A stretch of DNA of 64,000 nucleotides from Chloranthus sessilifolius. Taxonomy: Eukaryota > Streptophyta > Magnoliopsida > Chloranthales > Chloranthaceae. A program made the position numbers and the translations under genes. This document shows positions 16,118-58,243 of this stretch, piece after piece. Location: contig CM037586.1 of the NCBI GenBank assembly GCA_021018995.1, forward strand, positions 147,788,060 to 147,852,059. Direction: 5' to 3'. A model generated the notes under the pieces. The model did not search any database, was not told the origin of the DNA, and saw nothing but the letters and a program-made list of their open reading frames with translations. Numbering within the stretch: the first letter of the stretch is position 1; every line of letters begins with the position of its first letter.

Positions 16118-16552
16118 AAAACTTGATGTGATTTTTAATTGTAATGTTTTACTCGCAAGTGCACGAATCAGATTGTATATAGTGAGTGCGGAGTACGAGA
16201 TCGTTCCCACGAGGACTAATTTTGAAAGATCTAAAAGGACAAGACAATGATTCAGGAAATCTACTAAGATCTAACAGTATTCTACCAGTCTTATGATTTA
16301 GGTGGTTTGATGAGATGATAATTACTGACTACAAACTAAAACTTAACTGATAATTTAAAAATAAAGATAAAGATGAAGATACTAAATCCTCCCATCTTTG
16401 GTCCGTTCTTCCCATAATATAAATCTACGGATTAAACTATGAGATATGTCATTGAAAACAAACATCTTTTATGGAAGATAAATGGTCAAAACCCCGATAG
16501 GTTCCACGTTGCATCTCTGCAATCAGGACTTAGATGATTTTCATATATAGAT

Positions 16553-16880
16553 CTGAGATCAAGGGCATGGCTCGACACACTTGATCTCAGGTTCAAATAA
16601 AAATCATCCCAAAGTGGGTAAAAATTCTAACAATAATACCACCATAGATCTGAAATCAAGGGCATGGCTCAGCACACTCGATTTCAGATTAGAGAGTAAT
16701 TAAGATAAAATTACCATTACAGATCCAAGATCCAGGGTATGGCTCGGCACACTCGATCCTGGATCATAATCGTAATTAGATCCACACGATAAAAGCAAAA
16801 AGACCATATAACAATGGTTGGGTAAAATTACCGTCGCAGATCTGAGATCCCAGGCATGGCTCGGCACACGCGATCCCGGT
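16553..16880 (-). repeat. Array of four hairpin units in LTR A
   Basis: Units: 16553-16590 (11-bp perfect stem, CTGAGATCAAG with CTTGATCTCAG); 16648-16689 (10-bp perfect stem, ATCTGAAATC with GATTTCAGAT); 16722-16765 (10 of 11 pairs); and about 16842-16878 (weaker). The loop core GGCATGGCTCRRCACAC is nearly constant while the stems differ and still pair. The array lies downstream of the TATA-like box in the sense of transcription. Confidence 0.8.
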
Positions 16881-17340
16881 TAGTGGCGGAGATTTCATTC
16901 GTTCATAATAGCACAACAATCATAAAATAAGATCTCATATTTTAATCCTAAATTTATATTATTAGAAGTACATCCCTCGGATGGGAATCATTAGATCCCC
17001 ATCCCTATGAATTTAGCCACACATATTGTAATTAAATGACATAAATAAATAAGGAAGAGAAAATAAAATAAATTTAATAAATTAAAAATATCTCAACTTC
17101 AAAAGAAATTACTTTGATCCAAAAGTACGATGGTCTTTAGAAACGAGATTAATGCAGGAATAAACTTGAACAAAAATAATAAACTGAAGGAATGAGTACT
17201 GAAAAATTAAAAGAACAAAGCTCTCAAAAAGGAATAAATAAAAAACTCTCTATTTCTATGTCTAAAATTAAAGACTAAAACTAAAAACTCTAATTTCCTA
17301 TCTCTCTCTCTCTCTTTTTTTCCCGAAGTGTTTGAGTCGC

Positions 17341-17349
17341 TTTAAATAG
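17341..17349 (-). promoter_or_regulatory. TATA-like box of LTR A
   Basis: The minus strand reads CTATTTAAA followed by GCGACTC. The same box sits at the matching place in LTR B (31700-31708), LTR C (42070-42078) and LTR D (47741-47749), which supports a real core promoter. Confidence 0.6.
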
Positions 17350-18030
17350 ATTCCCAGTCGCAGAAGTCTCCCCAGCCGCAAAGTCAGGGTCGATTAATCG
17401 ACCCAATATGGTCGATGCATCGAGCCTAAAAAAAATCCAAAAAAATAGTTTTAAACTGTCAGTTCCGTTTTAGACACTGTTTTGTCCTCGATTAATCAAC
17501 CAAAAGGGTTGATGCATCGACTCCCAGAAATCCGTGAATTCTAGCACACTTTTTGTATCAAACACTGTTTCGGTATTTCGGCCATAACGTTCTGTCCTGA
17601 ACTCGGATTGAGGTGATTCTTGCGCCGTTGGAAAGCTGACGAAAAGATCTACAACTATTGTGTTTTGAAAATTTCATAATTCGGCCGTCTTGAAGGTACA
17701 AATTGAGCCACAAGTCGCACCAAGTTCTCGATGACCCAACGTTGCAGTGTTTTGACATTATTTTCAGAATTCTTGGGCTGTTTTCTACACTTGGCTTGTA
17801 TTTACCTGAAACACTTCAAATCTAATAATTCTCATCAGATAGCCTTCATCGGACAGCTAAATATAGGTATTTAGGGGTAAAATATCATCATATTTCAGTA
17901 CTCATCAGAAATTGCACTTATTCAAATAAGAAAATATGAAATCCTAAAGCTACCTAAAAACAGAAAATATGCAGAACTAAAAATAAAACCTAAATCCTAA
18001 CACATCCTAAAGGCTGTTAATTTCTTTTTC

Positions 18031-18579
18031 TCAAACATCAGTTCCTGACCCTGGCTTTGGCTTTGGAAAAGCAAAATTCCACATTGCTTCGGTGATACTC
18101 CCTGGATTCAAAGAATCAAGAGTCACATCCGGGGGCGGTGGTGTTGATGTGTTGGCCGTACTACTCGTGGCTAGATCCCGAAGTGTCGGAGCCGGATACA
18201 ATTTCGCCCAAGTCTCAGTTGGTATGAGATCAATAACCTCCTTTGGGATTGATTTGGGAATAAATGTAGCTAATGGAGTTAGTGGCGGTATCGATGAAGA
18301 GGAAGGAATGGGTCATGGTGATTTTGTGATGGGAGATGGAATCGGATCAAAATCAATCATCTCGATATCGCTGGAGAAGATCGGGGTGGGCTTGACTGAA
18401 CTATTGGCTCTTTTTCGTGCTGGCTCATCCCAAAGTTGAATAGGTACAGGATCAAGATCTACCATATTGATGTTGGTTAGATCCAGTGGAGACTGTGATC
18501 CAGTACTCCGTTCCCTTTTTCTTGCTGTTTCATTCATCTTTCTTAAAGTTGACCTTGTAAAATGGTTTCTTCCGGCCAT
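18031..18579 (-). pseudogene. Pro/Ser-rich accessory ORF of a retroelement, one TGA
   Basis: This is a 182-codon minus-strand frame from ATG (MAGRNHFTRSTLRKMNETAR) to TGA at 18031-18033, broken only by an in-frame TGA at 18310-18312 (context CCA-TGA-CCC, probably a former CGA). The N-terminus is basic. The middle holds two similar acidic/proline phrases (NMVDLDPVPIQLWDEPARKR and EMIDFDPIPSPITK). The C-terminal half is Pro/Ser/Thr-rich and ends WNFAFPKPKPGSGTDV. No catalytic or zinc motif is visible. It lies downstream of the ORF at 19186-19685 on the same strand and next to LTR A. Its start style resembles the extra ORF at 24015 (basic, Arg-rich). The function is unknown; a retroelement accessory protein is the best guess. 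Confidence 0.5.
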
Positions 18580-18762
18580 TGATGAGAATGAAGAGATAAA
18601 ATGATGATGAAAATTTTAGGTAAAGTTTCAAGGTTTTGGATATAAATAGAGAAAGAGTGTTTGAGATTTCTAAAAGACTTCTAGGAAGGAAAACAAAGTG
18701 TCCTGAAATATTAAACTTCCAAAAAAATTGGGAACAAATTTTTTTTTTTTTTTCGGCAAGTG

Positions 18763-18985
18763 TATTGGTCGATTGATCGACAGAATTAGTCGATTGATCG
18801 ACTAATACAGTTAATTATGATGACTTTATATAACCTCGATTGATCGACAAAAGATGGTCGATCAATCGAGAGGTTAACCAAACGGAGAGTCATCAAAAGA
18901 TATTTATTATTATTTTTATTTTTTTTAATTTTTTATTGCAAAGTCAATTGATCGACCAGTGAGGGTCGATTGATCGACTGATAAA
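18763..18985. repeat. Cluster of TCGATTGATCGA-type palindromes
   Basis: Six copies of GTCGATTGATCGAC or close variants occur in about 220 bp, in both orientations. The same motif recurs in the leader and 3' region of the Athila-like element at 28.3-28.6 and 46.3-46.6 kb. Confidence 0.85.
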
Positions 18986-19685: not shown

Positions 19686-22217
19686 TGTGACAGCCCGAAT
19701 TTCGGCACCTCGAAATCCGTGCCATCAGCACGATCATCTTGACCGTGCCCTTTAGCTAAGCACGGAACATTGGTATATCAAGCATGCAAAAAGTACTATA
19801 AATGCAATTGCGGAATTTTAAATCTATCTTAATTACTTCCCAAAAGACAGTTCTACCCTCATGCCTCTGCATGAATGGAGAACCGATCCGAACCATCGAT
19901 GATAGCAATCATCACGGATGGTTCGTCCCAAAAGAATAATCCAGGCTCCTTATATACATGGTTTCAACAAAATAAAGGCTTGACATACCAAGCCGTACAA
20001 AACTCTCTGTTAACACTCCCTCAAAGTGGCACAACGGAGTCCTCTAGAAGAAGTCCTCTGGAGGTGGCTCCAACTCTTCGCCGGCCGCAAGGTCCGATTC
20101 GCCGGGATCAGCGTCTCCTGAAGCCGCGGCAGCTGCTAATAGTGGACCTGCGACGTATAGTCTATAGGGTGAGCTACATCCTAGCTCAATAGGGAACAAA
20201 CACCGTTGAACATATAAATTATAACTCACATATATTCTATGATATGTCATGCATGATGTATCTATGCAATTGTTGATGAAAACAGTTTAAAAGCATTTCG
20301 TTTTACTGTGATTACTTGTATTTTCATTTACTCATGAATAATGCTGAAAAGGCCTAAAGCAAAACTTAAACTTTCAACTTAAGTAATCCCCGAGCAATAT
20401 AACATCGAGCCCCGATGAGATACCCTTCATCGTCATCTATATAGACAGTTTTAATGTATTCCCTGGGAATACCATATAGTACCCAAGCCCCTTTCCCCTG
20501 GGGATTGGTGGCGGGGTTTCACTTGTCTCAATCAACCCCCCTGGGGTGTGCTTACTATGTACGGATAAGCCTCCGCACTGGCCTACGGTTTCGCCGCCGT
20601 ATCGGTCACGGATATCCTGCCGTGTCAGTCGTGGATATCCCGCCACGTCGGTGGGATAACCTATCAAACCTCAAATAACAAAAATATCGGTGCCTTACAT
20701 ATAGTTATTCACCGTGTAAGTGTGCTATCTTATATCAGTTAGGCCCTATCAAACATGATTCAATCTTGGATACATCCACAGGATGTATCCATTATACATC
20801 ACACGATGCTCTTTTCTCTTCTTCTTCATCCCTAGGGATTGGCTCATTAGTTTACTCTTATGAATATCTCACACACAAACACTTTTTCACAATCCTTTAA
20901 GCAGTAGAATATTTGAATGGAAATCTATATCACTACATACATGCTCTTGTAAAATAAGGTACATGTTCAAGGTGTTCCCTACCTTAGGTCTCTATCGATT
21001 CAATGCATCAAGGTCCCACTCGGCTCCTTGTGCCCACTTCCATACGTATCACCTATGATACCATTAAACACACTCGAAACGTCACAAAAGATGTAATGAA
21101 TAAGTCTCAAGACCCCCCTAGAGTCTTGAAGTAAGAATCAAAAGTCAACAAAAACTAAGTCAGTCGACTAGTCGAGTTCCTGGTTCGACTAGTCGAAATC
21201 CAACTCGACTAGTCGATTCTCAAAATCGATTAGTCGAGGTCCAATTTCGATTAATCGATTCTCAAAATCGATTAGTCGAGCTCCAATTTCGATTAATCGA
21301 TTCTCAAAATCGATTAATCGATTCTCAAAATCGATTAGTCGAAATCCCCTGTTCTAACTGTCCAATTTTCACTTAAATAATTGAACATACAAAATCGACC
21401 AATCGCGTCCAATTCGACTAGTCGAAATCCTTACTCGACTAGTCGAAATCCAATTTCGACTGGTTGATTTCCCTCAACCCACTTTTACTCCTCACTGGGG
21501 GCTCTCAGTCGACTAGTCGACACCCAACTCGACTAATCGAATTTCAATTCGATTAGTCGAATTCGTGGTCATTTGACTTTTCAACTTCTTGGTGAATTTC
21601 GATTAATTGAATCCCAATTTCGATTAGTCGAAATCCCCGGTCATTGACCTTCTTTGCATTTCTTCCCCAATCTTTTTCTCAGTTATTTTCTAAGCAATAT
21701 TCCTACAATTTCCACCCATTTTAACCACAATTTATTCTATAAATCTACACCATTTATTTACAAGAATCTCACCTTAAATCAACCTCAAATTGATTTAAAT
21801 GTAGGGTTGGAAGGTTAGGGTTTCCAGCTTTTGTTTGAACAGATCCCCCGCGTCGAATCCGGCGCTTTGATCGCAAGAATTCCCTTCCCACAACTTGCAA
21901 TAACTTCTCACTAGCTCCTTTACTTCTCTTCCTCTCTCTCTCTCTCTTCTTTACTCCTCTCAACCACCAAAATATGAAATTTAGGGTTTTCAACCCTTTT
22001 TATCTTATCTCTTTTCTCGGTGTGGAGCACATACACACCCCTCGGTGTATGTTACTCTACACACTCCTCTATCTCTCCACTCTTCTACACTGGTTCACAC
22101 ATCACATCCGCTCATCTCACCATAAGTTCATCAATGAACTATCTCATGGTCAAACCTAAGACCAATCGGGCACGGATCCCGAGGTCCTCGTTTGACGTGA
22201 TTTTTCGGGTTATTACA
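19686..22217 (-). repeat. 3' LTR of the chromovirus (about 2.5 kb)
   Basis: The + strand begins TGTGACAGCCCGAATTTCGG and ends CGGGTTATTACA, so the minus-strand LTR starts TGTAATAACCCG. It is bordered by a polypurine tract at 22218-22233. It contains a tract of TCGACTAGTCGA/TCGATTAGTCGA-type palindromes at about 21160-21640 and a GC-rich part at 20480-20660. No LTR partner remains for dating. Confidence 0.85.
21160..21640. repeat. TCGACTAGTCGA palindrome tract in the LTR
   Basis: Roughly twenty copies of TCGA-N4-TCGA, or one-base variants, occur at short spacing with centres CTAG, TTAG and TTAA. Some recur as a longer unit (TCGATTCTCAAAATCGATTA). A sister tract lies at 24250-24850 between pol and the extra ORF. 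Confidence 0.9.
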
Positions 22218-24249: not shown

Positions 24250-24850
24250 GCTCGACTAGTCGAAATTCTCAGTTCGACTAGTCGAATTTCAAACTTGATA
24301 CCATCCCCGAATTCGATTAGTCGATTTTCTTAATTCGACTAGTCGGCTTTGATTTCGACTAGTCGAAATCCCATTTCGATCAGTCGAAATGATTGGGGTT
24401 CAAATTTCTAATTTTAGAGCCCACTGGAAGGACTCGATCGACATTAGTAAATCCGTGCTTCGATTAGTCGAATTTTAACTTCATTAAATATAATTCGACT
24501 AGTCGAAATCGTGTGCCCTTTTAAACTTCTACAACTCCCTCCATAACTCGATTAGTCGAATTCAATTTTCGACTAATCGATTTTCCCTTTATGTCCAATT
24601 CGATTAGTCGATTTCCCTTTCGACTAGTCGAATCGCCCACTTTCAGAAATCACTTTTAGACTCTTTAAGTAATTCGACTAGTCGAAATGTGAATTCGACT
24701 AATCGAAATTCCAAATTCGATTAGTCGAACCCTAGTTCGACTAGTCAAATTTTCTAACTTATTCTTTTGAACTCCTCGCTTTGGCATAGCGATGATTAAT
24801 CGATTTAACTTTCGATTAGTCGAATTGTCAATTCGACTAGTCGAAATGTC
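24250..24850. repeat. TCGACTAGTCGA palindrome tract between pol and extra ORF
   Basis: About twenty copies of TTCGACTAGTCGAA or one-base variants (CTAG, TTAG, TAATCG centres) occur with irregular 10-40 bp spacing. It resembles the tract inside the same element's LTR (21160-21640), so the motif occurs at two sites of one element. Confidence 0.9.
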
Positions 24851-24964: not shown

Positions 24965-27900
24965 TCACGTCGTTGGGAACAAGGCTGGATATTGTTCCTT
25001 CACATCGGCCTCTCGTTCCCAAGTAGCCTCTTCTTTTGGATGATTGTTCCACTGAACAAGCACTAAGGGAATCACTTTAGTGCGCAGTACTTGTTCTTTT
25101 CGATCCAAAATCTCCACTGGTTCCTCTATCATGCTCATGTCCTCACACATCTCTATAGGTTGCTTCCCTAATACATGAGACGGATCATTTACGTACTTCC
25201 TGAGCATCGATATGTGGAAAACATTATGCACTCGATCAAATAGCGGTGGTAAACCAATACGATATGCAACTTCACCTACTCGTCCCAAAATTTCGAACGG
25301 TCCAACATAACGTGGACTTAACTTTCCTCTCTTGCCAAATCTCATTACACCTTTCATAGGTGACACCTTTACAAACACGTGCTCGCCCACTTTATAGTCA
25401 ACACTAGTCCGCTTCATATCGGCGTAACTTTTCTGTCTACTCTGTGCTGTCTTCAACCTTTCTCTAATTATTTGAACGATGGTAGCGTTATCTTCAAGTA
25501 GCTTTGGTCCTAATACAAATTTCTCACCTGTTTCCTCCCAATTGAGAGGTGACTTGCATCGTCGTCCATACAGAGCTTCATACGGTGCCATGCCAATGCT
25601 CGTTTAGCGTTATTATATGCGAACTCGAGCATCGGTAGATACTCATCCCAGTATCCTTGCATATCAAGCATGCACGCCCTGAGCATGTCTTCTATTACCT
25701 GGTTCACTCGCTCTGTCTGTCCATCAGTTTGAGGATGGAAAGCTGAACTAAAGTCTAGCCGTGTTCCCATTCCTTCTTGAAATTTCTTCCAAAACTTGGA
25801 CGTATATGTGGATCACGATCCGAAACTATGCTGCTTGGAATACCATGTAATCTTACAATTTCCTTCATGTATAAATCTGCCAATCTTCTCGTATATCGTA
25901 GTGTTGTACGGCAAAAAGTCTGTTGATTTGGTCAATCGATTTCTGACGACCCAAATGGCATTGTGTCTCTTGGCAGTACGGGGTAATCCAACAATGAAAT
26001 CCATTGAGATCGATTCCCACTTCCATTCTGGTATTGGTAAAGGTTACAATAGTCCCGCAGGATGTCTATGATCAACCTTCACTTGCTGACAAGTCAAACA
26101 TCGTGACACATACTCGGCCACGTCTTGTTTTAGTCCTCTCCACCAGTAGTTCTTTTTCAAATCTTGGTACATTTTGGTGCTACCAGGGTGGATAGCATAA
26201 TTTGACTTATGGGCCTCATCGAGAATCGTTCGTCTTAGATCGGCGTTGTCCGGAATGCATAGACGGCCCTTAAACAATAAAGAACCATCTTCTTTTAATG
26301 AGAAGTCCGACCTGATGCCTTCACTCACGTCTTGATGAATCTTTGTTAATGTCGGATCTTTCATCTATAGATCGTGGATATGCTCAAATATCACTGGCTT
26401 TACTGATATGTTAGCCAAAAAGGATCCAGTGTCCTTTGACTCAATGTTCGCATCATAGAGTGCCAGGTCTTCCAATAATTTCCATCGGTGCATACCCAAA
26501 ATCAAAGAAGCTAACTGAGCTGAACCTTTTCAACTCAATGCATCGGCTACTACATTCGCCTTGCCTGGATGGTATTGTATGGAGCAATCGTAATCCTTGA
26601 GGAATTCCATCCATCTGCGCTGTCTCATGTTGAGTTCTTTCTGTGTAAACAGGTATCGGAGGCTCTTATGATCGGTGAAAATTTCAAAGGTTTCACCATA
26701 CAAGTAATGTCTCCAAATCTTCAGCGCAAAAATGACTGCTGCTAGTTCCAAGTCATGAGTCGGGTAATTTTTCTCGTGTTCTTTCAACTGTCTTGATCCG
26801 TAAGCTATCACCTTCTTGTATTGGTTGAGCACACAACCAAGGCCATTGTATGACGCGTCGCTGTACACGGCGTATCCTCCACTGCCTGAAGGAATCGCTA
26901 ACACTGGAGCCGAAGTGAGTCTCGTTTTGAGTTCTTGGAAACTCTTCTCACATGCCTCACTCCACTCAAACCTTGAATCTTTTCGTGTCAGCTTTGTGAG
27001 AGGTCCCGATATCTTTGAAAACCCCTCAACAAAACGTCGATAATAGCCTGCTAAGCCCAGAAAACTTCGGACATCGGTCACTGTCTTTGGTTGCTCCCAT
27101 TTGACTACTGCTTCTATCTTTGCTGGATCTACAGTGACACCATGCTTTGAGACAACATGTCCCAAAAAGCTAACTTCTTCCAACCAAAACTCACACTTGC
27201 TGAGTTTGGCGTATAATTGGTGTTCACGTAGCGTCTGTAGAGCAATCCTCAAATGTTCTTCGTGTTCCGTCTTGGATTTGGAGTATATAAGTATATCATC
27301 GACAAATACTACGACGCAGGAGTCCAAGTGTGGTTTAAACACTCGGTTCATCAGATCCATAAACGACGCCGGAGCATTCGTTAATCCAAACGGCATCACA
27401 AGGAATTCATAGTGTCCATACCGCGTCCGGAAAGCTGTCTTTTGAATGTCCTCAGCTTTGACTCGCAACTGATGATACCCAGATCTCAGGTTCGATCTTG
27501 GAAAAATACCTTACTCCTTGCAGTTGGTCGAATAGATCGTCAATTCTAGGCAAAGGGTAGCGGTTCTTCACAGTGAGTTTGTTCAATTGCCGATAGTCAA
27601 TGCATAGCCGCATTGACCCATCCTTCTTCTTAACAAACAAGACCGGTGCTCCCCATGGAGATACACTTGGTCTAACAAACCCCTTGTCCATAAGCTCTTG
27701 TAGTTGTTCCTTCAACTCCTTTAACTCAGCGGGAGCCATCCTATAAGGTGCTTTCGAAATAGGCTCCGTTCCTGGTGCTAAGTCAATGGCGAATTCTACT
27801 TCTCTCTCTGGAGGTAGTCCAGGCAATTCTTCTGGAAACACGTCAGCGAAGTCTCGCACAACTGCTATCTCAGAAATGACATTCTTTTCTTCCTTGTCCC

Positions 27901-28287: not shown

Positions 28288-28640
28288 TCGATCGACCTTT
28301 TAAGGTCGATTGATCGACATTGACCATTGCGCTTCCCTAGGCATTGGAATTGAATTCTGAGAGAGTCGATTGATCAACCTAACATGTCGATCGATCGATA
28401 ACGGCGCATGCAGAGTATGAAACGACGTGACACTTAAATCACCTTGGGAAAACGCGACATTTAGAGTCGATCAATCGACTACGAACATCGACTGATCGAC
28501 AATAAAGACAAATAAAGAAAACCATTCCTGATCATAAATTTCCACATTTAATGTCGATTGATCGACAAAAGATGGTCGATCAATCAACCAATCGTCTAAT
28601 TATCGATCAATCGACGGTTAATGTCGATCGATCGACCAAA
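28288..28640. repeat. 3' region with TCGATTGATCGA palindromes
   Basis: Eight or more variants of GTCGATTGATCGAC occur in 350 bp, including GTCGATCGATCGAC and a pair at 28288-28320 that read as one long inverted repeat (CAATCGATCGACCTT/AAGGTCGATTGATCGAC). They follow the end of pol and the conserved phrase GGTTGCCTCCCAAGAAGCG at about 28671, as in the sister element at 34223. Confidence 0.85.
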
Positions 28641-30691: not shown

Positions 30692-31090
30692 TGATGTAAT
30701 TTTAAATATAACCCTTGCAAGTGCACAAGATCTATTGCAGTAAGGCAAGAACAAGGGTGTCGAACCCACAGGAAAATATGAATTTTAATTAATTCTTTCA
30801 GAGATTTAAAAACGTCCCTAAGGAAGTACCAAAGGGCAGATTCAATTTTACCAAAATTTATCACACTTTTCCTAAATGCAGAAAAATAAATTAATCTAAA
30901 CAACTAATTACCGATAAATCTAAGAACAGTATTTAAAGATGATCAAGGAATATGTTATCCCAGATTTGTACCCCTTCTCTATCATTAAAACTCACAGTTT
31001 CATTAAAGCATCATTCACACCATCATTCGTCTATAGAGATGATTCGTAATAAAATATGATCATCAATCCGACATATCCTATCTAAAAATA

Positions 31091-31207
31091 ATGACTCAGC
31101 CTATTATTGCGGTATGAGTCATGTAAGAAGCATAGTGTATCTCATGATGTTTAGATCACAATAGTAAAAATCTAGCGATTATAGCCGTTGATACGCGCAA
31201 TCAACGG
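31091..31207 (-). repeat. Two hairpins in LTR B
   Basis: ATGACTCA (31091-31098) pairs with TGAGTCAT (31115-31122). CCGTTGAT (31185-31192) pairs with ATCAACGG (31200-31207) around the 7-nt loop ACGCGCA. Both are found at the matching place in LTR C (41421-41452 and 41555-41577). Confidence 0.8.
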
Positions 31208-31699
31208 TCATAACAAGCATTCAATATATTTTCAATAACACAAACCTTTAGCAAAACGATTCCATGATGACAATAAATCGACTATGGTATTAATCATAAA
31301 TAAGGGTATTTATCTGGGGATCGCATCTTCCTCGATCTACTGATTTAGCCGCTCATCTTTGGTGTATGATCTCCTTGTTCATTCAAAGTCATTCCTCTTT
31401 TTATTTCTTTCAAAAGATCTTTGTTTACAATGCCTTTTCCTAAATACAATCTATGCTTTCATGAACGTAAAGGAAAAACAATGTAAATCCTAGGTACAAT
31501 CTACCCAAATGGAACCCTAGAAGAAGGAGAAAGAAGAACTCTTGAAAAGATGCCAAGAGGAGTCTAAAACCAAAAATAATAATAATGAATAATAATCCTC
31601 TAAAAAATTCTCTCCAAAAACTCTAAAAAAGAAAAGCAAAAACTAACTCTCTAATTATCTATCTCTAATTCCTCTTTCTTTTCGAAGTGTTTGATCCGC

Positions 31700-31708
31700 T
31701 TTAAATAG
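31700..31708 (-). promoter_or_regulatory. TATA-like box of LTR B
   Basis: The minus strand reads CTATTTAAA followed by GCGG. It is conserved at the same place in LTRs A, C and D. Confidence 0.6.
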
Positions 31709-32177
31709 AGCCGAAGTTTGCCAGCCGCAGAGGTGTTCCAACTCGAAAATTTAGGGTTGATTAATCGACCCAATAGGGTCGATGCATCGACCTCCCAGAT
31801 TTTCGTGAATTCCCGCCGAACTTTGCATCAGACACTGCTTCAGTATTTTGGCCATAACATTCCGTCCCGAACTCAGATTGAGGCGATTCTTGCGCTGTTG
31901 GAAAGCTGACAGAAAGCTCTACAACGTTTGGGTTTTGATAATTTCATAATTTGGCTGTCTTGAAGGTTCAAATTGATCTGCAAGTTGCACCAGGTTCTCG
32001 ATGACCCAAAGTTATAGTGTTTTGACATTATTTTCAGAATTCTTGAGCTGTTTTTTGCACTTAGCTTGTATTTACCTGAAACACTTCAAATCTAATAATT
32101 CTTATAAGATAGCCTTCATCGGATAGCTAAATGTAGGTATCTAGGGATAAAATATCATCATATTTCACTACTCATCA

Positions 32178-41016: not shown

Positions 41017-41420
41017 AAAACTTAATCGATTTTAAATGTAACCCTTATAAGTGCACAAGATCTATTGCAGTAAGGCAAGAACAAGGGTGTCGAACCCACA
41101 GGGAAATGTGAATTTTAATTAATTCTTTCAGAGATTTAAAAACGTCCCTAAGGAAGTACCAAAGGGCAGATTCAATTTTAATAAAATTTATCACACTTTT
41201 TCTAAATGCAGAAAAATAAATTAATCTAAACAACTAATTACTGATGAATCCAAGAACAGTATTTAAAGATGATCAAGGAATATACTACCCCAGATTTATA
41301 CCCCTTCTCTATCATTAAAACTCACAGTTTCATTAAAGCATCATTCACACTATCATTCGTCTATAGAGATGATTCGTAATAAAATATGATCATCAGTCCG
41401 GCATACCCTATCTAAAAATA

Positions 41421-41577
41421 ATGACTCAGCCTATCATTGCGGTATGAGTCATGTAAGAAGCATAGCGTATCTCATGATGTTTAGATCACAACAGTAAAAA
41501 CATAATCGCTCCACAGCCTAGATCAGTCTGCAGGTTTAGATCTAGCGATTATAGCCATTGATACGCACAATCAACGG
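41421..41577 (-). repeat. Three hairpins in LTR C
   Basis: ATGACTCA/TGAGTCAT (41421-41452), the extra module hairpin (41504-41550), and CCATTGAT/ATCAACGG (41555-41577, one A-C mismatch compared with B). All are downstream of the TATA-like box in the sense direction. Confidence 0.78.
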
Positions 41578-42069
41578 TCATAATAAGCATTTAATATATT
41601 TTCAATAACACAAACTTTTAGCAAAACGATTCCATAATGACAATAAATCGACTATGGTATTAATCATAAATAAGGGTACTTATCTGGGGATCGCATCTTT
41701 CCCGATCTACTGATTTAGCCGCTCATCTTTGGTGTATGATCTCCTTGTTCATTCAAAGTCATTTCTCTTTTTATTTCTTCCAAAAGATCTTTGTTTACAA
41801 TGCCTTTTCCTAAATACAATCTATGCTTTCATGAACGTAAAGGAAAAATAATGCAAATCCTAGGTACAATCTATCCAGATGGAACCCTAGAAGAAAGAGA
41901 AAGAAGAACTCTTGAAAAGATGCCAAGAGGAGTCTAAAATAAAAAATAATAATAATGAATAATAATCCGCTAAAAAATTCTCTCCAAAAACTCTAAAAAA
42001 GAAAAGCCAAAACTAACTCTCTAATTATCTATCTCTAATTCCTCTTTTTTTTCGAAGTGTTTGATCCGC

Positions 42070-42078
42070 TTTAAATAG
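42070..42078 (-). promoter_or_regulatory. TATA-like box of LTR C
   Basis: The minus strand reads CTATTTAAA followed by GCGG, as in LTR B. Confidence 0.6.
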
Positions 42079-42547
42079 AGCCGAAGTTTCTCAGCCGCAG
42101 AGGTGTTCCAACTCGAAAATTTAGGGTCAATTAATCGACCCAATAGGGTCGATGCATCGACCTCCCAGATTTTCGTGAATTTCTGCCAAACTTTGCATCA
42201 GACACTGCTTCGGTATTTTGGCCATAACGTTCTGTCCCGAACTCGGATTGAGGCGATTCTTGCGCCGTTGGAAAGCTGACAGAAAGCTCTACAACTTTTG
42301 TGTTTTGACAATTTCATAATTCGGCCGTCTTGAAGGTCCGAATTGATCTACAAGTCACACCAAGTTCTCGATGACCCAAAGTTACAATGTTTTGACATTA
42401 TTTTCAGAATTCTTAGACTGTTTTCTGCACTTGGCTTGTATTTACCTGAAACACTTCAAATCTAATAATTCTTATCAGATAGCTTTCATCGGATAGCTAA
42501 ATGTAGGTATCTAGGGGTGAAATATCATCATATTTCACTACTCATCA

Positions 42548-44529: not shown

Positions 44530-46075
44530 ACTCTATTGTCGATTTATTTTCCAGATCTCAATGTGGTGATTGTCTTGATCTGTTGTTGGCTTTCTTCCAG
44601 AGATGAGGTCGAGGCTTGCTCAATAGCCATCTGCCCTCTTGGATTCGGAATTGGTTGGCTTGGGAATGATCCCTTCTCTCTCGCAGAGGAGCGTTATCAA
44701 TTGCCCAATTTGCGTCTCTATCCTTGAGACTGAAGAGGTATTGGATTGGATGAACTTCTACATATCCTCACTCTGAGGATATTGATTCTGAGACTAACGT
44801 GGTGCAACATTTCGTTATTGACTATTGAATCCCGGTGGTGGAAAATTTTGTGCGACACTAGGTTGACTCGTGGATTGTGAGAATTGGTAATTCTGGTTCG
44901 ATTGCCTAGGTTGTACACTTTGATTTTGATTCTGGTGAAATTAATTTCCTCCTCCATAGTGTTGTTGCTGGAATTGTCCCTGACCAAACTGTGATTGTGG
45001 TCCCTGATTGAAATTTTGATTCAGGTACATATTCATCCCTTGACCTCTGCCTTGAGTTCTTTGATTTCCATGTTTCCATGAGAAATTTTGATGATATTTT
45101 CAACTATTTGGGTTGTTTTCATTGAAAATATTTCCCTGATTTCGCCCATAAGCGTTCAATGCGTTCAATTGCTCACTAGGATCTTCTGAATAAAATTGCA
45201 TTGACAGGCAACCGTTTGATGTGTGCATTGGACTTGCACAATATGAGCATGGATCTGGTTGCACGTTTACAACACTTACGTTTTTCTTCAATTTCAATTC
45301 CTCAACTTGTTGAGTGAGAAAATTTATTTTTGTCATTAGGTCTGGTGTTTCTTTTACCACATACAATCCTCCTTTTTTTGTTGAGCTTCCTGCTTGATCT
45401 CAATGCTTGTTTGGCTGATCTCGACTGTTCGAGAAATTCCATTGCTGTGAATCTTCAGCCAACTTTTCCAAGAATCGATAAGATTCAGCTTCTCTCAATC
45501 CCAAGAATCCTCCACTGTTCATGGATTCAATCAGATGTCGATTGGCCTAATCTAGTCCATTGTAAAAATATTAGACCATTCGCCATTTCAAGAATCCGTG
45601 GTGAGGACATTTCAATAAGATATCCATGAATCTATCCTAAGCTTCATAAAATCTCTCATCATCTTCTTGTGTAAAATCAATGATTTCACGTCTTAAGGCA
45701 TTAGTCTTTGCCACAGGAAAGAATTTTGACTAAAATTTCTTAACCATCTGATCCCAGGTGGTTATGGATCCAGCTGGTAAAGAGTTTAACCATGCCTTGG
45801 CCTTATCCTTTATGGAAAAAGGGAATAGGCGTAGTGTCACAGATTCTTCACTGAAATTTTGATACACTGAAGAACAGACTTCAGTGAAGTCTTTGATGTG
45901 TTGGTACGGATCTTCTCTTTCTATACCATGAAAAATTGAAAGGATTTGAATCACATTAGTACGAATTTCAAACCTACCACCAGGCGTAGCAGGATACAAG
46001 AAGGGGTATTGGTAGTGATTGGAGCAAACAACTACCTTAGAGTTGGTTCCTCCTCATTTTCATGTTGTTGATTTT
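44530..46075 (-). pseudogene. Outer Athila-like gag
   Basis: Readable from about 46075 (EEEPTLR) through GGRFEIRTNVIQILSIFHGI (45999), the gag core LRLFPFSIKDKAKAWLNSLP and FYNGLD, then a complete nucleocapsid finger CSYCASPMHTSNGC (C-x2-C-x4-H-x4-C) near 45230, Gln/Asn-rich repeats and ITTLRSGK ahead of the linker. Frameshifts and stops are frequent (for example 45730, 45100 and around 44900). In element order it lies between leader and protease. Confidence 0.85.
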
Positions 46076-46264: not shown

Positions 46265-46719
46265 TTCGATTGATCGACTGTTTAGATCGATCGATTGAGA
46301 GAATTGAAATTTTGAAATTTAAAACTTTTTTTTTTTTTTGGGATTGATCGACTGTTTAGGTCCATCGATCGCCCAAGAAACAATCTTCGATTGATCGACT
46401 GTTTAGGTCGATTGATCGAGGATTCAAAATTTGAATTTTTTTTTTTTTTTTTAAATTTGAAAGAAATGCCTTTTTTTTTTTATATTCGAAAAATCCGCAA
46501 TCCGAAGATTACGAACGAGATTTTTGCAGAAATTGTGGAGTCGATTGATCGATAACAAATTCTTTTATACAAAAGAGATAATCAGTGCGAAATTTTCATG
46601 AGTCGATTGATCGACTGTTAAGCTCGATTGATCGACCTCAAAGGTTCTTAGAATTAATTTTCTATTTCCCAACTTTTTTTTTTCGATTGCCCAGATCCCC
46701 GACAGCGGCGCCAAAAACT
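46265..46719 (-). other. Leader with palindromes and primer site of the outer element
   Basis: The leader contains about seven TCGATTGATCGA-type palindromes (46268-46640) and two T runs (46327-46340, 46437-46452). The tRNA-Asp-type primer site is at 46697-46713 (CCCCGACAGCGGCGCCA, two mismatches), 6 bp from LTR D. Confidence 0.8.
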
Positions 46720-47091
46720 TGTGTAAATTAAGTTGTATTCGCAAGTGCACGAATCGTGATGTAGTCAGTGGGTGCAGAGTGCGAGATCGTTCCCGCAAGG
46801 ATCCATTAGAAAATTTAGAAGAGAGAAATAGTGACTAATTAAAAGAACAGGCACAGATTTATCACAGTAACTACTAATCTAACACTTTGAAAGCTTTTGA
46901 TGAATGAGATAAATACTAGTGAAACTAAAGATTTAAACAAATAATGAAAGATAAAGATTGAGATACTAAATCTTCCCATCGTAGGTTTATCATTTATGAT
47001 ATACAAATTTGTGATGAAGATAGAAGATTTATAAAAGATGCCTGGAATCTGAACACCTACGAATTCTGTAATACAGATCCGAGATTAAGGA

Positions 47092-47331
47092 GATGTATGA
47101 TTAACATCCCGTGAGTGTATGATTAACACTCACACCTCAGAAAAATACTTAGAATCAGATCTCAGAGTATAGTCCACACTACAGATCTGAGATCAAGGAG
47201 ATGTGTGATTAACATTCCGTGAGTGTATGATTAACACTAACACCTTAGAAAGTGATAGAGTTTATCTTGAGGCAGAAGAAATTAGGATAACACTCCATTA
47301 CAAATTTGAGGTTACTGAGCATGATTAGCTC
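47092..47331 (-). repeat. Array of five small hairpins with loop ATGATTA in LTR D
   Basis: 47092-47108 GATGT-ATGATTA-ACATC; 47111-47133 GTGAGTGT-ATGATTA-ACACTCAC; 47201-47215 ATGT-GTGATTA-ACAT; about 47219-47241 GTGAGTGT-ATGATTA-ACACTAAC (one mismatch); 47317-47331 GAGC-ATGATTA-GCTC. The 7-nt loop is constant but for one base. The stems differ in sequence and length yet pair. Confidence 0.88.
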
Positions 47332-47740
47332 CCGTATCTCAGAAGCCGAGGAAATATTATCCATGGAAAGATAGAATCAGAGTCCACTACAAAATAATAT
47401 CTTCATCACAGATTTATATTATAATAAATGAATACCTCGAATGAAAATCATTAAATCCCTATCCTTAAACGAGATTAGCCACTCATAATAAAAGTAAATG
47501 ACATAATTGAAAAATATATCAACATCAATATTTAAAATACCGTAAAAAGAGCTTTAACAAATTCCACAAATAGCTTTAATCCAAGTTCCTTACGGCTCCT
47601 CGTTTGAATGCAGATAAATAAAACTATTCTAAAATCTAACACACCGAAATAAAAATGCTCTCCCAAACTTAAAGCGGAAGAACAGAACTTAAAAAAAAAA
47701 ATGCAAAGACCGAAGATCCTTGCGAATCCTCAGATTTTTC

Positions 47741-47749
47741 TTTAAATAG
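47741..47749 (-). promoter_or_regulatory. TATA-like box of LTR D
   Basis: The minus strand reads CTATTTAAA. It is conserved with LTRs A-C. Confidence 0.6.
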
Positions 47750-48119
47750 CATCCCAATCCGTAATTGAAATTCAAATTCAAATTCAAATTCGAACTTGGT
47801 CGATTGATCGACTGAATTGGTCGATCGATCGACCAAGATAAATTTGTAATTTTCAAATTTAAATTCCTCCGGATTATGTCGATCAATCGACCAAAAAGGG
47901 TTGATCGATCAACCTAGTCAAATGATCAATTACCTCTGTTTTTGCTTCACTCGTCCAGTTCCCTTCAGTTTTTTGCACCATTTTACCCTTCTTAATGTGT
48001 TTAATGGTCACTTTATCCTGAAACTTAGAAAACTTGCTAAATCATATTAGATAGCTTTCATCGGATGGTTAAGTATAAATTTTTAGGGGTGAAATATCGT
48101 CATATTTCACTGCACATCA

Positions 48120-49627: not shown

Positions 49628-49795
49628 TTGTTATTGGCTGCACTTTAGAAGTGTGTGTGGAGAGAAAGAATAACTTTGATACCATGTAGATAGAAATTCA
49701 ACAGGTCTAACTTGTTATTGGCTGCACTTTAGAAGTGTGTATGGAGAGAAAAAATAACTTTGATACCATGTATATAGAAATTCAACAGGTCTAAC
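49628..49795. repeat. 84-bp tandem duplication
   Basis: 49628-49711 and 49712-49795 are near-identical 84-bp units (TTGTTATTGGCTGCACTTTA to CAACAGGTCTAAC). The unit spans the junction between the TRIM-like LTR end and its primer site, so part of the LTR and the primer site occur twice. Confidence 0.92.
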
Positions 49796-49882
49796 TCAAT
49801 CTCACAAAATTGGCTTATAAGATAAGGTTTGTCCAAAAAATAAAGATCCTTATAAGGCCCTGCGCACAAATGATGTGGGACA
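49769..49882 (-). mobile_element. TRIM-like short LTR with primer site
   Basis: On the minus strand the 114-bp unit starts TGTCCCACATCATTTG and ends TCTATATACA, followed directly by TGGTATCAAAGTTA (49755-49768), a near match to the initiator tRNA-Met primer site. Its inner half matches the + strand block at 9345-9455. No internal domain or second LTR is evident; the neighbouring 84-bp duplication blurs the inner end. Confidence 0.65.
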
Positions 49883-50396: not shown

Positions 50397-52548
50397 CCTC
50401 ATGGTAGATTACAATCTGAATGTGTTACTTTTTCAAGATTTCAGCCTTTTCATCAGTAAGAGAGTTTTTTTTTTTTTTGTGGGTATCACAATTGAGTCTG
50501 ATATTTTCAAGGAGTTCAAGATTTTTTAATTTTATTCCATTAAATTCTTGTTTATAAAGTTGTTATTGACTAATTTCTTATATGAAATTTGAGAATAACA
50601 ATTGTAAACTTTGAGCCCTTGATTATGATAATTAGTTTCATATATAGGGGATGCTCCTATTTGGTTTTAAAAGTGTTCTTCATTTTGTTTTGCAGGAGGA
50701 TATGAGAAAGGAGACAGAGAAACCCCAAGAAGAAACAGCTATTTGGGTTCCCCACATAAGAAACCCAGATGCCAAAACGACCCCTTCCTCGCAGAAACAG
50801 CAAATAACACCAGAGATCTCATCAGCCATTTACCTGACGAATGCATATTCGAAATCTTCAGACTCCTCCCATCCTCCCGCGACCGTTGCTCCTGCGCTCT
50901 CGTCTCTAAGAAATGGCTTACCTTACAAGCTAACATTAGCAGTTCCGAGTTCAAATCGGACCCCAAACTCTTGTCTACCGCCACTTGCAACAAAGTATCG
51001 AGATGCCTGCAAGGAAAGAAAGCAAACGACACTCGTCTAGCTGCAATAGCTGTAGGAATCTATGCTCGCGGTAGCCTCGGCGAGCTTTGTATTAGAGGAA
51101 GCCACCCTTCTCAAGGGATCACAGATTTTGGGCTTAAAATTATAGCTCAAGCTTGCCCAAATCTTAAATCTCTTGTCCTTTCGGATTGCTTAAATGTCGG
51201 AAACAAAGGGCTTGAATCGATTGCGCACGGTTGCAGCAGCTCACTTGAGAAGCTCGTGTTGGTCAATTCACCGTTGATCAGCGATAAGGGTCTCATCACC
51301 ATTGCTAAAAACTGCCCGAATCTGTCGACGCTGAATCTAGAGTCTTGCCCGTTGATCGGAAACGAATCTCTAGAAGCATTTGCCAGGTTCTCTTTGCAGC
51401 TCGATTCTCTTTCTCTTACCAAGTGTGTGCTGGCTGGTGGTGACCGGGGGATCATTTCGATGATTACCAGCCTGCCCAGATTAGCGAAGCTTATGTTGGC
51501 TTTTTTAAGAGTAAGATATTGTCTTTTTGAAGCAATCACCAAATACGGTCGATCCCTGAGAAGTTTGTGTCTGGAAAACATATCGTTTATTGGCGAAATG
51601 GGCTTTTGTGCTATAGGCATATCGGAACGGTTAGAGTGCCTATCTTTGAAGTGGTGTTCTGGTTTAAACGATGCGAGTTTTAAAGCGATTGGAAATGGGT
51701 TTGTTTCACTGAAACAAATATGGGTTAGAAACTGTTACTTGCTAACTGATAAGGGTCTGAGAGAGCTAACAAGATCAACTGCAATGCTGGAGACCCTCAA
51801 ATTAGAGGGTTGCAGAAGGATCACATGGAGTGGTTTAATGGACGCTCTCACGAATTGCAGTGACAAACTAAAGGTTTTGTCTCTAGTGAAGTGTGGAGGC
51901 GTGGAAGAAGACCCTGTAAGCTGCAGAAGAGCCTCTTATCATCCGAAAAAGAAGCTCCCTTTTCTACAGTCTCTGACACTGAAGAAATGCCTTGGAATCG
52001 GTGACGATTTCTTGTCGTGGATAGGATGCGCATGTGCGCAGGTTAAGCATCTTAATCTTATAGGACTGAGCGGTGTCACAGACAAAGGTGTTGTCGCCAT
52101 ATCCAAGTCTCTGCAATCGGAAACCAAAACGTTGGTTAGTGTGGATTTAAGCGGGTGTTTTCGAATAACCGATTTGAGTGTTTTAGCCCTGACTCGGTTG
52201 TCGGAAGAGAAGCTACGGTCACTGAGATTGGAGGGTTGTGAATGGGTGAGTGATCGAAGCTTGGAGATGATTGGGAGTGGGTGGTTCCCTAACTTGGTAG
52301 AAGTAGATGTTTCTAGGTGTGGTATAAGCGATGAGGGTGTTTTTTGGTTGATGAGATCCAAGGGACATCATATAGAAGTGCTTTCTCTGGGTGGGTGTTT
52401 GGGTATTACGGATCAGAGCTTGGGTTTGTTTGAGAGTATGATGTGTGGGAGTTTGGCGGGTCTGAATGTGAAGGGTTGCCCCGGGTTGACGATGAAGGGC
52501 ATTGATTCTGCGAGGGAGGCTCTTTGGTCCTGTGATTTATTGTATTGA
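50333..52548 (+). CDS. EIN3-binding F-box protein (EBF1/EBF2-like), intact
   Basis: It is an F-box/LRR substrate receptor. EBF1/EBF2 in Arabidopsis recruit the EIN3/EIL transcription factors to an SCF ubiquitin ligase and so restrain ethylene signalling. Exon 1 50333-50357 (MLLAMELD), intron 50358-50695 with a CT microsatellite at its start, exon 2 50696-52548. The phase-1 junction restores Gly (DG|GYEKGDRETP), and a short first exon at this spot is usual in EBF genes as I remember them. About 625 residues, close to Arabidopsis EBF1. F-box at about 50-90 (LPDECIFEIFRLL, CALVSKKWLTL), GKKANDTRLAAIAVG ahead of the repeats, Cys-rich leucine-rich repeats (CPNLKSLVLSDC, SDKGLITIAKNCPNL) to the end, and a C-terminus ALWSCDLLY like EBF 'YKCDILS'. 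No internal stop. The N-terminal region before the F-box is short and divergent. The start codon choice (50333 or 50345) is inferred. Confidence 0.88.
50363..50392 (+). repeat. (TC)n microsatellite at the 5' end of the intron
   Basis: About 15 TC units start 5 bp after the inferred donor (G|GTTCG). They could equally be 5' UTR if the first exon is placed elsewhere. Confidence 0.9.
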
Positions 52549-52580
52549 CTATTAATTATTATTATTATTTTAAAAAAATT

Positions 52581-54569: not shown

Positions 54570-54990
54570 GGATCAAAATATCGGTAAACCGATACGTATC
54601 GTCCTGACCTCCAGGACGATACGTATCTGGTATCGGCCGATACATTCAATGTATCGGCGATAAATTTAATGTATCGGTTTGATACATTGAATTTTTTTTT
54701 TTTTTCCGATTGTCTATACAATTAAAAAAAAAAAAAGATTTCCGATTGTCTACACAGTCGCCATCGATTGTCTAGACAATCGAAAAAAATATATATATAC
54801 ATATTATCGGACGATACATTGAAATTATCGTCCGATAATTTCAATATATTGTCCGATACGGGCGATACATTGCCTGTATCGGACGATAAGTATATTGTTT
54901 TTAAGGGGGTACGATACAATGCCTTTCTATCGTACCGCTTAAATCCAAAACCGACACGTATCGCACGATACGATTTTTTGACTCATGCAC
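54570..54990. repeat. Dense palindrome cluster built on CGATAC/GTATCG
   Basis: It contains a perfect 16-bp inverted repeat with a 5-nt loop: GATACGTATCGTCCTG (54591-54606) and CAGGACGATACGTATC (54612-54627). It also holds TATCGGCCGATA, paired CGATTGTCTAGACAATCG near 54764-54781, and ATTATCGGACGATACATT/AATTATCGTCCGATAATT pairs. There are about fifteen GATAC/GTATC words in 420 bp. It may be a MITE or nested MITEs; ends are not defined. Confidence 0.7.
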
Positions 54991-56515: not shown

Positions 56516-56564
56516 TAGTAATATATTATTATTTTCTTGCAATTCTGTTATTTCATTTTTTTCC

Positions 56565-56751
56565 ACCATCTGGATTATTGATAGTGGTGCGTCTGATCAC
56601 ATGACCTCTTATACATCTTCTTTCACAAGTCTGATTCAAACTCCTAAAATTAAACTCGTTAAGCTACTTACTGGTGATATAACAACCATTACACATGTTT
56701 GTTCAGTTAATCTTTATAATAATATTATTTTACATGATATTTTTTGTGTAC
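56565..56751 (+). pseudogene. Copia protease fragment, cut by a solo LTR
   Basis: The catalytic motif IIDSGASDHMTSY lies near 56570-56610, then a stretch ending LHDIFCV directly before the solo LTR. It resumes after the LTR at 58244 as VPQFQFNLQSVHKLT. Confidence 0.85.
56747..56751. repeat. Target-site duplication TGTAC, left copy
   Basis: Exact match to 58244-58248. Confidence 0.9.
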
Positions 56752-57456
56752 TGATCAGTCACATAACTTACCATTTTATCATCCTTAACTTAGTGATGCT
56801 AGGACTTAGTTTGCTACTAACAAGTTAACGATGTGCAGATATTAAGGAAAAATAAAAAAAGATAGACAAAGTGCTAATATTCATCAAAATGAACTCAAAA
56901 GGCAGTAAAAAGACGATTTAGCGTGAGAAGATGATTCGCAATATATTGAAAGCTAGAAAATCGTAAAAGATGATTGAGCGTTGATGAAGTAAAGAAATAA
57001 AAAAATCGTAATTTATGATTCTCTAGAAGTGGAAGCAACACAAGAAGAAAAAGTAAGCAATCATAAGAAAAATCGTAATTGAAGAATCGTCATAATAGGA
57101 GAAGTTAGAAAATAATGATTTACGATTTTCTGAAAAAGCGAATAAAACAGACAATCCTAATTTACAATTGTGCAAAAGCAAAGCTTTCCTACTATTGAAC
57201 TGCTACTGCTGATCATGTGAAAACTACTATCGATATGCACAGAATTAGAAGTTTGGTGAATTACGGATCTGAGAAGATTGATGAAGATAAACTCCGAAGA
57301 TCTCTGCTGCTGTTATCAAGGAAATAAATTCGAAGCACATCTACAGTTTGAAAGCAAGGAAGAATAAAATTAGGAATTAGAGTTATATTAGGATACTTTT
57401 ATTTTAGGAGTTTCTTTTATTAGAATTAGAATTTTATAAACCGACTCCTTATAATC

Positions 57457-57464
57457 TATAAATA
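57457..57464 (+). promoter_or_regulatory. TATA box of the solo LTR
   Basis: TATAAATA, in the context AATCTATAAATAAGAGGGTC. It occupies the place corresponding to the CTATTTAAA box of LTRs A-D, upstream of the hairpin array. Confidence 0.6.
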
Positions 57465-57501
57465 AGAGGGTCCGGTATAGGAATAAACCATCGAAGAAAT
57501 T

Positions 57502-58006
57502 CTCAGCATCAATTGACGACTGAGGTTGGATTTTCTTTCGATCATTAGAGTAGATTTTTATTACTTTGTAGATTAGATATCAGATATTTCTTAAGAGAAA
57601 TTAACGACTGCTATTGGGTGTTGAAGATTAGTGTAGATATCCTAGTTTCTCAGAAGCAATTGATGATTGAAGCAGAGGAGTGAAAGATATATTTACTTTA
57701 TTTTCTAGTTTAGATTTTATTTGCTTTATTTATATGCTTTGTAAACATCTTCGAATTTTGATTTGAATTGACGACTGAGGTTGAAGTTTGCAGATTAGTA
57801 TAATGGTTTTTACTTTTTCATCTTCAATTTTCTTGAATTTGATTGACGCCCAAATTTTAGGAGATTATTGATTAGATTAAATCTGTGTTGAAGAATTCTA
57901 GTATTTGATTGACGACCAAATTCTGGAAGGCTGCAATATGGTTTAATGGTATTGTTTATTTTGATAAATATTCGTTGACTGAAGATTGGGATTGATGACC
58001 TCAATC
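57502..58006 (+). repeat. Array of hairpins with loop ATTGAYGAC in the solo LTR
   Basis: Clear hairpins: 57836-57856 (AATTTG/CAAATT, loop ATTGACGCC), 57896-57928 (TTCTAG+ATTTG with CAAAT+CTGGAA, loop ATTGACGAC, one T-T mismatch) and 57984-58006 (GATTGGG/CCTCAATC, loop ATTGATGAC). A further one near 57502-57529 pairs 8 of 9 bases. More loop copies near 57600, 57659 and 57768 have weak stems. Loops are 9 nt. Confidence 0.75.
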
Positions 58007-58243
58007 TGAAGGAGAATTAAGATTTATTTTATGCACTTTAGATTAAGAACTCATTCTTTATTCATATTTCTCCAGTAGTTTATAACCTTAAAAGATAAAT
58101 ATAAACTTTGAAATAGAAATATAGATAAAATAATAACTTCTTCGTGGGAACGATCCTATACTAGGTCTACAATTTCCATTGTGTGCTTGCACTAGGTTAC
58201 GACTTGATTTTAATTTAAATATATACATACTATAAGCCAGTCA

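What the first reader, a model, noticed from the sequence alone, without database searches (positions are those of the whole stretch)
16124..58243. Hairpin arrays are positionally conserved across five Athila-type LTRs
Distance from the primer-site edge of the LTR: A 429-756 bp, B 399-515, C about 400-555, D 372-611, solo LTR 237-741. All are downstream of a conserved TATA box (CTATTTAAA in A-D, TATAAATA in the solo LTR). Since R/U5 RNA is at the 5' end of the genome and also near the 3' end, such a module could serve packaging, dimerisation, strand transfer, translation control or poly(A) choice. The shared position with unrelated loop sequences suggests fast-evolving but maintained structure. 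This is my best candidate for an undescribed system in the window.
Basis: partly seen in the sequence, partly recalled or inferred. Interest (0 to 1): 0.9.

Follow-up and report, generated by a model that had tools for sequence, protein, structure and literature searches.

The report
Tandem RNA hairpins in retrotransposon LTRs
Several retrotransposon families in this plant genome carry, in the presumably transcribed part of their long terminal repeats, a row of small hairpins whose loops stay the same while the stems change but keep pairing, which suggests a maintained RNA signal of unproven function, perhaps for packaging the element's RNA.

Summary
Solo LTR: seven units share the 9-nt loop ATTRAYGMY. 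With five units of a diverged copy elsewhere in the genome, all 8 stem pairs show changes on both sides (covariation 0.778 against 0.363 shuffled, 0/500). LTR D: loop TAATCAY, 12 units with a second copy (0.479 against 0.288, 0/500). LTR A: loop around GTGTGCCGAGCCATGCC, 8 units with a second copy (1/500). The same loop motifs outside the arrays rarely sit in stems. G·U outnumbers A·C, pointing to sense RNA, but only the solo family carries this alone. B and C hold different hairpins without a shared loop. The 'five conserved positions' are not independent: B and C are the two LTRs of one insertion, A and D are homologous, A is a mosaic. Best explanation: a family-specific, multivalent protein-binding RNA platform in the 5' leader, most likely for Gag packaging or dimerisation. 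Maintained structure is well supported; function is inferred. Closest known: palindrome-rich Sirevirus LTRs. The genome-wide survey could not be run: of the genome-search runs only one search was answered.

The parts
56794..58234 (+). Solo LTR 'S' (Athila/Tat-like 3' end; 3' boundary uncertain by about 10 bp) inserted in a copia-type element (copia by eye, no Pfam match)
   Evidence: begins TGATG; 3' end shares the GTGGGAACGAT...GTG.(A)CTTG tail with A and D; diverged copies in L031/L034
57504..58007 (+). S hairpin array: 7 units at 57504-57528, 57592-57616, 57651-57675, 57759-57783, 57834-57858, 57900-57924, 57983-58007; 8-bp stems, 9-nt loop ATTRAYGMY
57457..57464 (+). TATAAATA, 47 nt upstream of the first S unit
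   Evidence: sequence
46720..48119 (-). LTR D (5' LTR, followed by primer site TTTTTGGCGCCGCTGTCGGGG)
47089..47335 (-). D hairpin array: 5 units at 47313-47335, 47219-47241, 47197-47219, 47111-47133, 47089-47111; loop TAATCAT (TAATCAC in one)
   Evidence: fold z -4.9
47741..47748 (-). TATTTAAA of LTR D
16124..17907 (-). LTR A (5' LTR followed by primer site); mosaic: first 420 bp like C, remainder like D
16552..16880 (-). A hairpin array: 4 units at 16841-16880, 16724-16763, 16649-16688, 16552-16591; long loop around GTGTGCCGAGCCATGCC
   Evidence: fold z -4.5
17341..17348 (-). TATTTAAA of LTR A
41023..42547 (-). LTR C (5' LTR of the C-B insertion)
   Evidence: 40 near-full-length matches, itself included, among the 40 candidates scored of 10432
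41421..41577 (-). C hairpins: 41555-41577, nested 41503-41551 (inner 41518-41545), 41421-41452; no shared loop
30692..32177 (-). LTR B (3' LTR of the same insertion, TSD CCTTC)
31091..31207 (-). B hairpins 31185-31207 and 31091-31122; the nested one of C is deleted
47800..47890 (-). TCGA-N4-TCGA palindromes upstream of the TATA box of D (also 17390 and 17412 in A, 31779 in B, 42149 in C)

Best explanation
Several Ty3/gypsy (Athila/Tat-like) families in this genome carry, between TATA box and primer site, a tandem array of hairpins that look like sense-strand RNA structures. Each family has its own near-invariant loop. The stems drift but are kept paired by compensatory change. Shown here: the arrays, the loop constancy, the covariation, and their presence in a diverged copy elsewhere. 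Inferred: transcription starts at the TATA box, so the array lies in the 5' leader; stems only present the loop; the loop is recognised several times over by one protein. The most likely protein is the element's own Gag nucleocapsid, so that the array acts as packaging and dimerisation signal. Family-specific loops would then be the lock to a family-specific Gag.
For: S family, 12 units: 84.4% of stem cells paired against 62.2% shuffled, all 8 pairs with double changes (2/500), covariation 0.778 against 0.363, 0/500, slid registers at most 0.174. D family, 12 units: 83.3% against 71.2%, 0.479 against 0.288, both 0/500. A family, 8 units: 93.1% against 87.9%, 1/500. Window units alone, permuting right arms: S p = 0.00075 (8 sites, one outside the array), D p = 0.03 (5), A p = 0.08 (4). 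Between units of the same LTR loops are 80-98% identical; arms 35-57% in S and D, 68-81% in A. Same loop motif outside arrays: S 17 in-array sites (duplicates included) mean 5.94 of 8 against 77 outside mean 2.34, maximum 5; D 13 mean 6.08 against 82 outside mean 2.83, of which 2 reach 5.5 or more. G·U 35 against A·C 7, background 46:22, p = 0.019; S alone 18:0, p = 0.001. C family, 31 sequences, three hairpins: stem arms vary 0.016, loops 0.055, LTR mean 0.037; 54 of 1354 slid masks as low. Covariance models: 17 of 18 (S) and 8 of 9 (D) hits in 228 kb lie in the arrays.
Against: No transcript, probing or protein-binding data. Poly(A) site unknown, so R and U5 cannot be told apart; the TATA box is missing at the matching place in D2 and S2. 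No clear kissing partner for the loops. Gag link untested. Units are related, so shuffle counts are not probabilities: within D's two hairpin classes permutation is not significant (p = 0.20 and 1.0), in D and A the number of doubly changed pairs is ordinary (113/500, 179/500) and further pair types are not in excess (358/500, 500/500), so these two rest on few events. G·U excess is not significant in D alone (p = 0.32). Not every unit pairs well (one S unit 4 of 8; first D2 unit 3 of 8). Two of seven S units have no counterpart in L031. In C a fourth hairpin, left out, has arms no less variable than its loop (0.048, 0.041), and the first has arms at the LTR mean (0.034) and is broken in the L040 copy. 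In an unbiased scan of 228 kb D2, D and S arrays ranked 1, 4 and 5 (7.6, 6.2, 6.1; D2 on the antisense strand), A was not in the top 12, and slid controls reached 6.5.
Confidence: 0.4

Rival explanations
1. Mutational, not selected: tandem units multiply by unequal exchange and the arms of each palindrome are corrected against each other by template switching during reverse transcription or replication, which makes stems look compensatory.
For: Arrays are tandem and vary in number (4 in A and A2, 5 in D, 7 in D2, 7 in S, 5 in S2); reverse transcription is prone to template switching (recalled); LTR A is itself a mosaic.
Against: Arm correction yields perfect Watson-Crick arms, yet 35 of 228 paired cells are G·U with only 7 A·C cells; loops stay near-invariant while arms of the same LTR are only 35-57% identical in S and D, the opposite of homogenisation.
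Confidence: 0.2
2. Translation or RNA-processing control: the hairpins lie in R or U5 and act in leader scanning or shunting, splicing or poly(A) choice.
For: Array is in a long stretch full of ATGs; the A-type loop contains ATG in 6 of 8 units; AATAAA lies upstream of the hairpins in B and C.
Against: The loop ATG is not shared by the D or S loops; AATAAA is absent from A, A2 and D. Small ORFs were not tested formally.
Confidence: 0.15
3. DNA-level cis-regulatory palindromes and siRNA hot spots, as described for Sirevirus LTRs.
For: Sirevirus LTR palindromes cluster upstream of the TATA box (PMC2829016, passages) and attract small RNAs (PMC10760457, passages); this window has TCGA-N4-TCGA palindromes in that place.
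Against: The arrays of this finding lie downstream of the TATA box, have asymmetric loops and variable stems, and favour G·U over A·C; a DNA-binding or siRNA origin would be expected to conserve the arms (inference).
Confidence: 0.15

Closest known systems
Palindromic repeated motifs of Sirevirus (Ty1/copia) LTRs
   Same: Several short inverted repeats clustered in the LTR, with predicted secondary structure (PMC2829016 and PMC10760457, passages)
   Different: Sirevirus motifs lie upstream of the TATA box and the palindrome itself is the shared motif. Here the loop is constant, the stem is not, and the array is downstream of the TATA box in Ty3/gypsy LTRs; maize Ty3/RLG elements were reported to generally lack an obvious peak of such structure
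Packaging and dimerisation signals of retroviral and BARE leader RNA
   Same: Structured RNA near the primer site (retroviral part recalled); BARE2 is said to have conserved dimerisation and packaging signals (PMC3735527, passages)
   Different: No tandem array with a constant loop is described in the passages read; packaging not tested here
Retrozymes and Cassandra (structured RNAs inside plant LTRs)
   Same: Functional RNA fold inside an LTR (retrozyme paper PMC4918200 seen in a search listing; Cassandra recalled)
   Different: The window's only Rfam match at gathering score is snoR71, outside the arrays: no hammerhead or 5S match

Membership tests
Athila/Tat lineage of Ty3/gypsy | LTRs with TG...CA ends and 5-bp target duplication | tested here: met
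   B/C insertion with TSD CCTTC; TG...CA for A, B and D; 3' end of C altered and that of S uncertain
Athila/Tat lineage of Ty3/gypsy | Primer site of tRNA-Asp type (TGGCGCCGTTGCCGGGG; assignment recalled) | tested here: met
   found with up to 3 mismatches behind A, C and D; S is a solo LTR and has none
Athila/Tat lineage of Ty3/gypsy | gag, protease, RT, RNase H, integrase without chromodomain | tested here: inconclusive
   Pfam gag, protease, RT, RNase H and H2C2 zinc-binding domain in pieces between C and B; RT, RNase H, an rve core and a sub-threshold protease in pieces assigned to D by collinearity. A chromodomain was found only in the other element at 24965-25603. No tree was built; no ATHILA ORF1 match among the 20 pieces scanned
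Sirevirus-type palindromic LTR repeats | Copia-type element with palindromic motif upstream of the TATA box | tested here: not met
   arrays lie downstream of the TATA box in LTRs linked to Ty3/gypsy genes
Retroelement packaging signal | Located in the genomic RNA leader between cap and gag | tested here: inconclusive
   downstream of TATA box and upstream of primer site in A, C and D; start and poly(A) sites unmapped
Retroelement packaging signal | Bound by Gag and needed for packaging | not testable with these tools
   no protein-binding data

The most novel reading that the evidence does not exclude
Plant Ty3/gypsy families use a repeat-coded RNA recognition module: a row of hairpins with a family-specific, constant loop in the LTR leader, read several times over by the family's own Gag. 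Loop and Gag co-diverge, so that each family packages its own RNA.
Probability: 0.33. Interest if true: 0.82.

Novelty: new variant of a known kind. Interest (0 to 1): 0.6.

Why it matters
How plant LTR retrotransposons pick their own RNA for packaging is little known; [quoted passage not shown] A repeated hairpin with a constant loop gives a short, testable RNA ligand per family, and a sequence mark by which leader structure can be scanned across plant genomes.

Tried and rejected
Loop-loop kissing partners: 6- and 7-mers complementary to the loops are not enriched in S, S2, A or A2; D and D2 show 6 and 7 six-mer hits where 2.1 and 2.5 are expected; whether any is shared at an aligned place was not tested formally. 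Hidden tRNA or Rfam RNA: none in the arrays. A generic shared-loop count on LTRs did not beat shuffles, and a generic list of three-hairpin groups gave a null of 3-13 per 60 kb: too weak, dropped. The first register for S (8-nt loop) gave no signal (p = 0.56); the 9-nt loop gave p = 5e-5. That choice was made after seeing the sequences; the slid registers are the control. One further S motif site in the solo LTR (about 57277, upstream of the TATA box, 1 of 8 pairs) was but not. One search aligned copies in mixed orientation and was discarded; one search replaced it. miR854/siR854 of Athila6: the passages read call it a TE siRNA not made by the microRNA machinery (PMC3276544). The 'hairpins' of PMC11410651 are transgene constructs (passages). 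Further D, A or S copies in L042-L047: none, only C-family LTRs in L046. Literature: searches showed no description of loop-conserved hairpin arrays in Athila/Tat LTRs; they were read as listings, with passages of seven papers; subscription papers are mostly not held.
Full report
SETTING. The window is G000:C3:147788060-147852059 of a 2.17-Gb plant genome. An EBF-type F-box gene at 50671-52548 has its best named hit, at 59%, in Magnolia, so a magnoliid-like plant is likely. LTRs A-D are on the minus strand, the solo LTR on the plus strand. I set the ends from TG...CA, primer site and target duplication: A 16124-17907, B 30692-32177, C 41023-42547, D 46720-48119, solo about 56794-58234. In scripts B carried 10 extra flanking bases at its 3' end. 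B and C are the two LTRs of one insertion (TSD CCTTC; 92%). D is the 5' LTR of the element that this insertion interrupts, by collinearity of coding pieces. A and D align at 59% over the last 1.1 kb, while the first 420 bp of A is 90% identical to C: A is a mosaic. The five LTRs therefore represent three lineages at most.

IS IT THERE? Sliding 120-nt folds give z -4.5 in A and -4.9 in D at about 420-445 nt from the 3' edge, but only -1.9, -1.5 and -2.1 in B, C and solo; in solo the lowest window, -2.9, is outside the array. Upstream of the TATA box a second block scores -3.5 in A, -2.5 in B, -5.0 in C and -7.3 in D; it consists of TCGA-N4-TCGA palindromes and is not part of the finding.

COPIES. 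The one answered genome search returned 44 matches to LTR C, 40 of them near full length (LTR C itself included), of which 30 were fetched; only the best 40 of 10432 candidates were scored, so this is a lower bound. I then sampled 16 stretches of 10 kb and one of 4.4 kb next to such copies. They held an A-family LTR (L038 6889-8655, 86%), a D-family LTR (L035 from about 2683, 70-76% in its long pieces), two S-family LTRs that are an inverted duplicate of each other (L031, L034; 72%), and further C-like LTRs in L038, L040 and L046.

COVARIATION. S: 7 window units plus 5 of L031 (L034 left out as a duplicate; two window units have no counterpart there). Loop invariant at 5 of 9 positions. 84.4% of 96 stem cells paired against 62.2% shuffled; all 8 pairs with double changes (2/500); further pair types 19 against 15.2 (6/500); covariation 0.778 against 0.363, 0/500; slid registers at most 0.174. 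D: 5 units plus 7 of L035. Six of seven loop positions invariant; 83.3% against 71.2% and covariation 0.479 against 0.288, both 0/500; but pairs with double change (113/500) and further pair types (358/500) are ordinary, and within each of the two hairpin classes of 5 units permutation is not significant. A: 4 units plus 4; 93.1% against 87.9% and covariation 0.317 against 0.211, both 1/500; pairs with double change 179/500, further types 500/500. Window units alone: S p = 0.00075, D p = 0.03, A p = 0.08. In S the first register tried, an 8-nt loop, gave nothing (p = 0.56); the 9-nt loop gave p = 5e-5 with both copies.

CONTROLS. The S loop motif occurs 77 times outside the arrays in the window and L031-L047, with a mean of 2.34 of 8 pairs (maximum 5), against 5.94 at 17 array sites, duplicates included. 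The D motif has 82 outside at 2.83 (maximum 6.5, two at 5.5 or more) against 13 inside at 6.08. Loops are more alike than arms between units of one LTR (S 0.85 against 0.35-0.43; D 0.98 against 0.49-0.57); in A the right arm is as alike as the loop (0.81 against 0.80). G·U 35 and A·C 7, against 46 and 22 in permuted arms, p = 0.019 overall, 0.001 for S, 0.32 for D. Models from the units, run on 228 kb, give 18 hits for S (17 in arrays, one at E 1.3) and 9 for D (8 in arrays, one at E 4.3; 4 of the 12 D training units, which overlap their neighbours by a base, were not listed); apart from the L034 duplicates the array hits trained the models. An unbiased scan ranked D2, D and S first, fourth and fifth (7.6, 6.2, 6.1) with palindrome arrays and others among them; D2 scored on the antisense strand, A was not in the top 12, and slid controls reached 6.5.

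C FAMILY. In 31 sequences (30 fetched, LTR C among them, and B) the arms of three hairpins vary less (0.016) than their loops (0.055) and the LTR mean (0.037); 54 of 1354 slid masks are as low. Singly, the nested hairpin and the one at 41421-41452 carry this (arms 0.006-0.014); the first (0.034) is at the LTR mean, and a fourth candidate left out has arms 0.048 against loop 0.041. In a 68% relative the hairpin at 41421-41452 keeps all 16 arm bases and the inner 41518-41545 all 14, while the outer stem of the nested hairpin is lost; the first hairpin is broken in the L040 copy. So C has conserved hairpins but no loop-sharing array.

POSITION. Array to 3' edge: 227-756 nt in all. TATA box to array: 413-500 nt in A-D but 47 nt in solo; A2 keeps the box, while D2 and the L031 copy of S lack it at the matching place. 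Since the LTR tails are recognisably homologous between A and D, common descent explains part of the shared place. AATAAA lies upstream of the hairpins in B and C and is missing in A, A2 and D, so R against U5 is open.

MECHANISM. A near-invariant loop, a variable but paired stem, several copies and sense-strand G·U are what a multivalent RNA-binding site would leave. Because loops differ between families and not within, a partner that also differs between families, Gag, is my first choice; a host protein, translation control and template-switch correction are rivals. Only the structure is shown.

LITERATURE. Sirevirus LTRs carry palindromic motifs upstream of the TATA box (PMC2829016, passages), linked with small RNAs (PMC10760457, passages, citing Bousios 2016, not held); [quoted passage not shown] BARE passages (PMC3735527) mention packaging and dimerisation signals. 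LTR models of PMC3601003 (passages) link residual conservation of long R regions to stem-loops. None of the passages read describes such arrays.

Noticed in passing
window 21164-21631, 24252-24844, 28306-28635, 46266-46635, 47800-47890, 17390-17423, 18769-18977: 59 TCGA-N4-TCGA 12-bp palindromes in the window; 26 of the 58 successive gaps are 20-22 bp, about two helical turns (counted from the list). They lie in the U3 of A-D just upstream of the TATA box, in the leader of D, and in and near a chromodomain-bearing Ty3/gypsy element. They resemble the Sirevirus repeated motifs but in other element types.
   Followed up: partly
window 54591-54972: Cluster of strong palindromes with CGATAC/GTATCG cores, separate from the solo LTR.
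   Followed up: no
window 16124-17907: LTR A is mosaic: first 420 bp 90% identical to the C family, rest related to the D family, pointing to recombination between families.
   Followed up: partly
window 15460-15880: Repeated inverted pairs around AACGG/CCGTT, beginning CACTACGTGAAAA when read on the minus strand, possibly a non-autonomous CACTA end cutting the element behind LTR A.
   Followed up: no
window 45593-45699: snoR71 match (54.9 bits) between LTRs C and D.
   Followed up: no
window 49628-49796: Two copies of an 84-bp unit, 96% matches.
   Followed up: no
L031 and L034 with C4:98.05-98.29 Mb: C-family LTR pairs and S-family LTRs lie in mirror order about 220 kb apart, which looks like an inverted duplication.
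   Followed up: no
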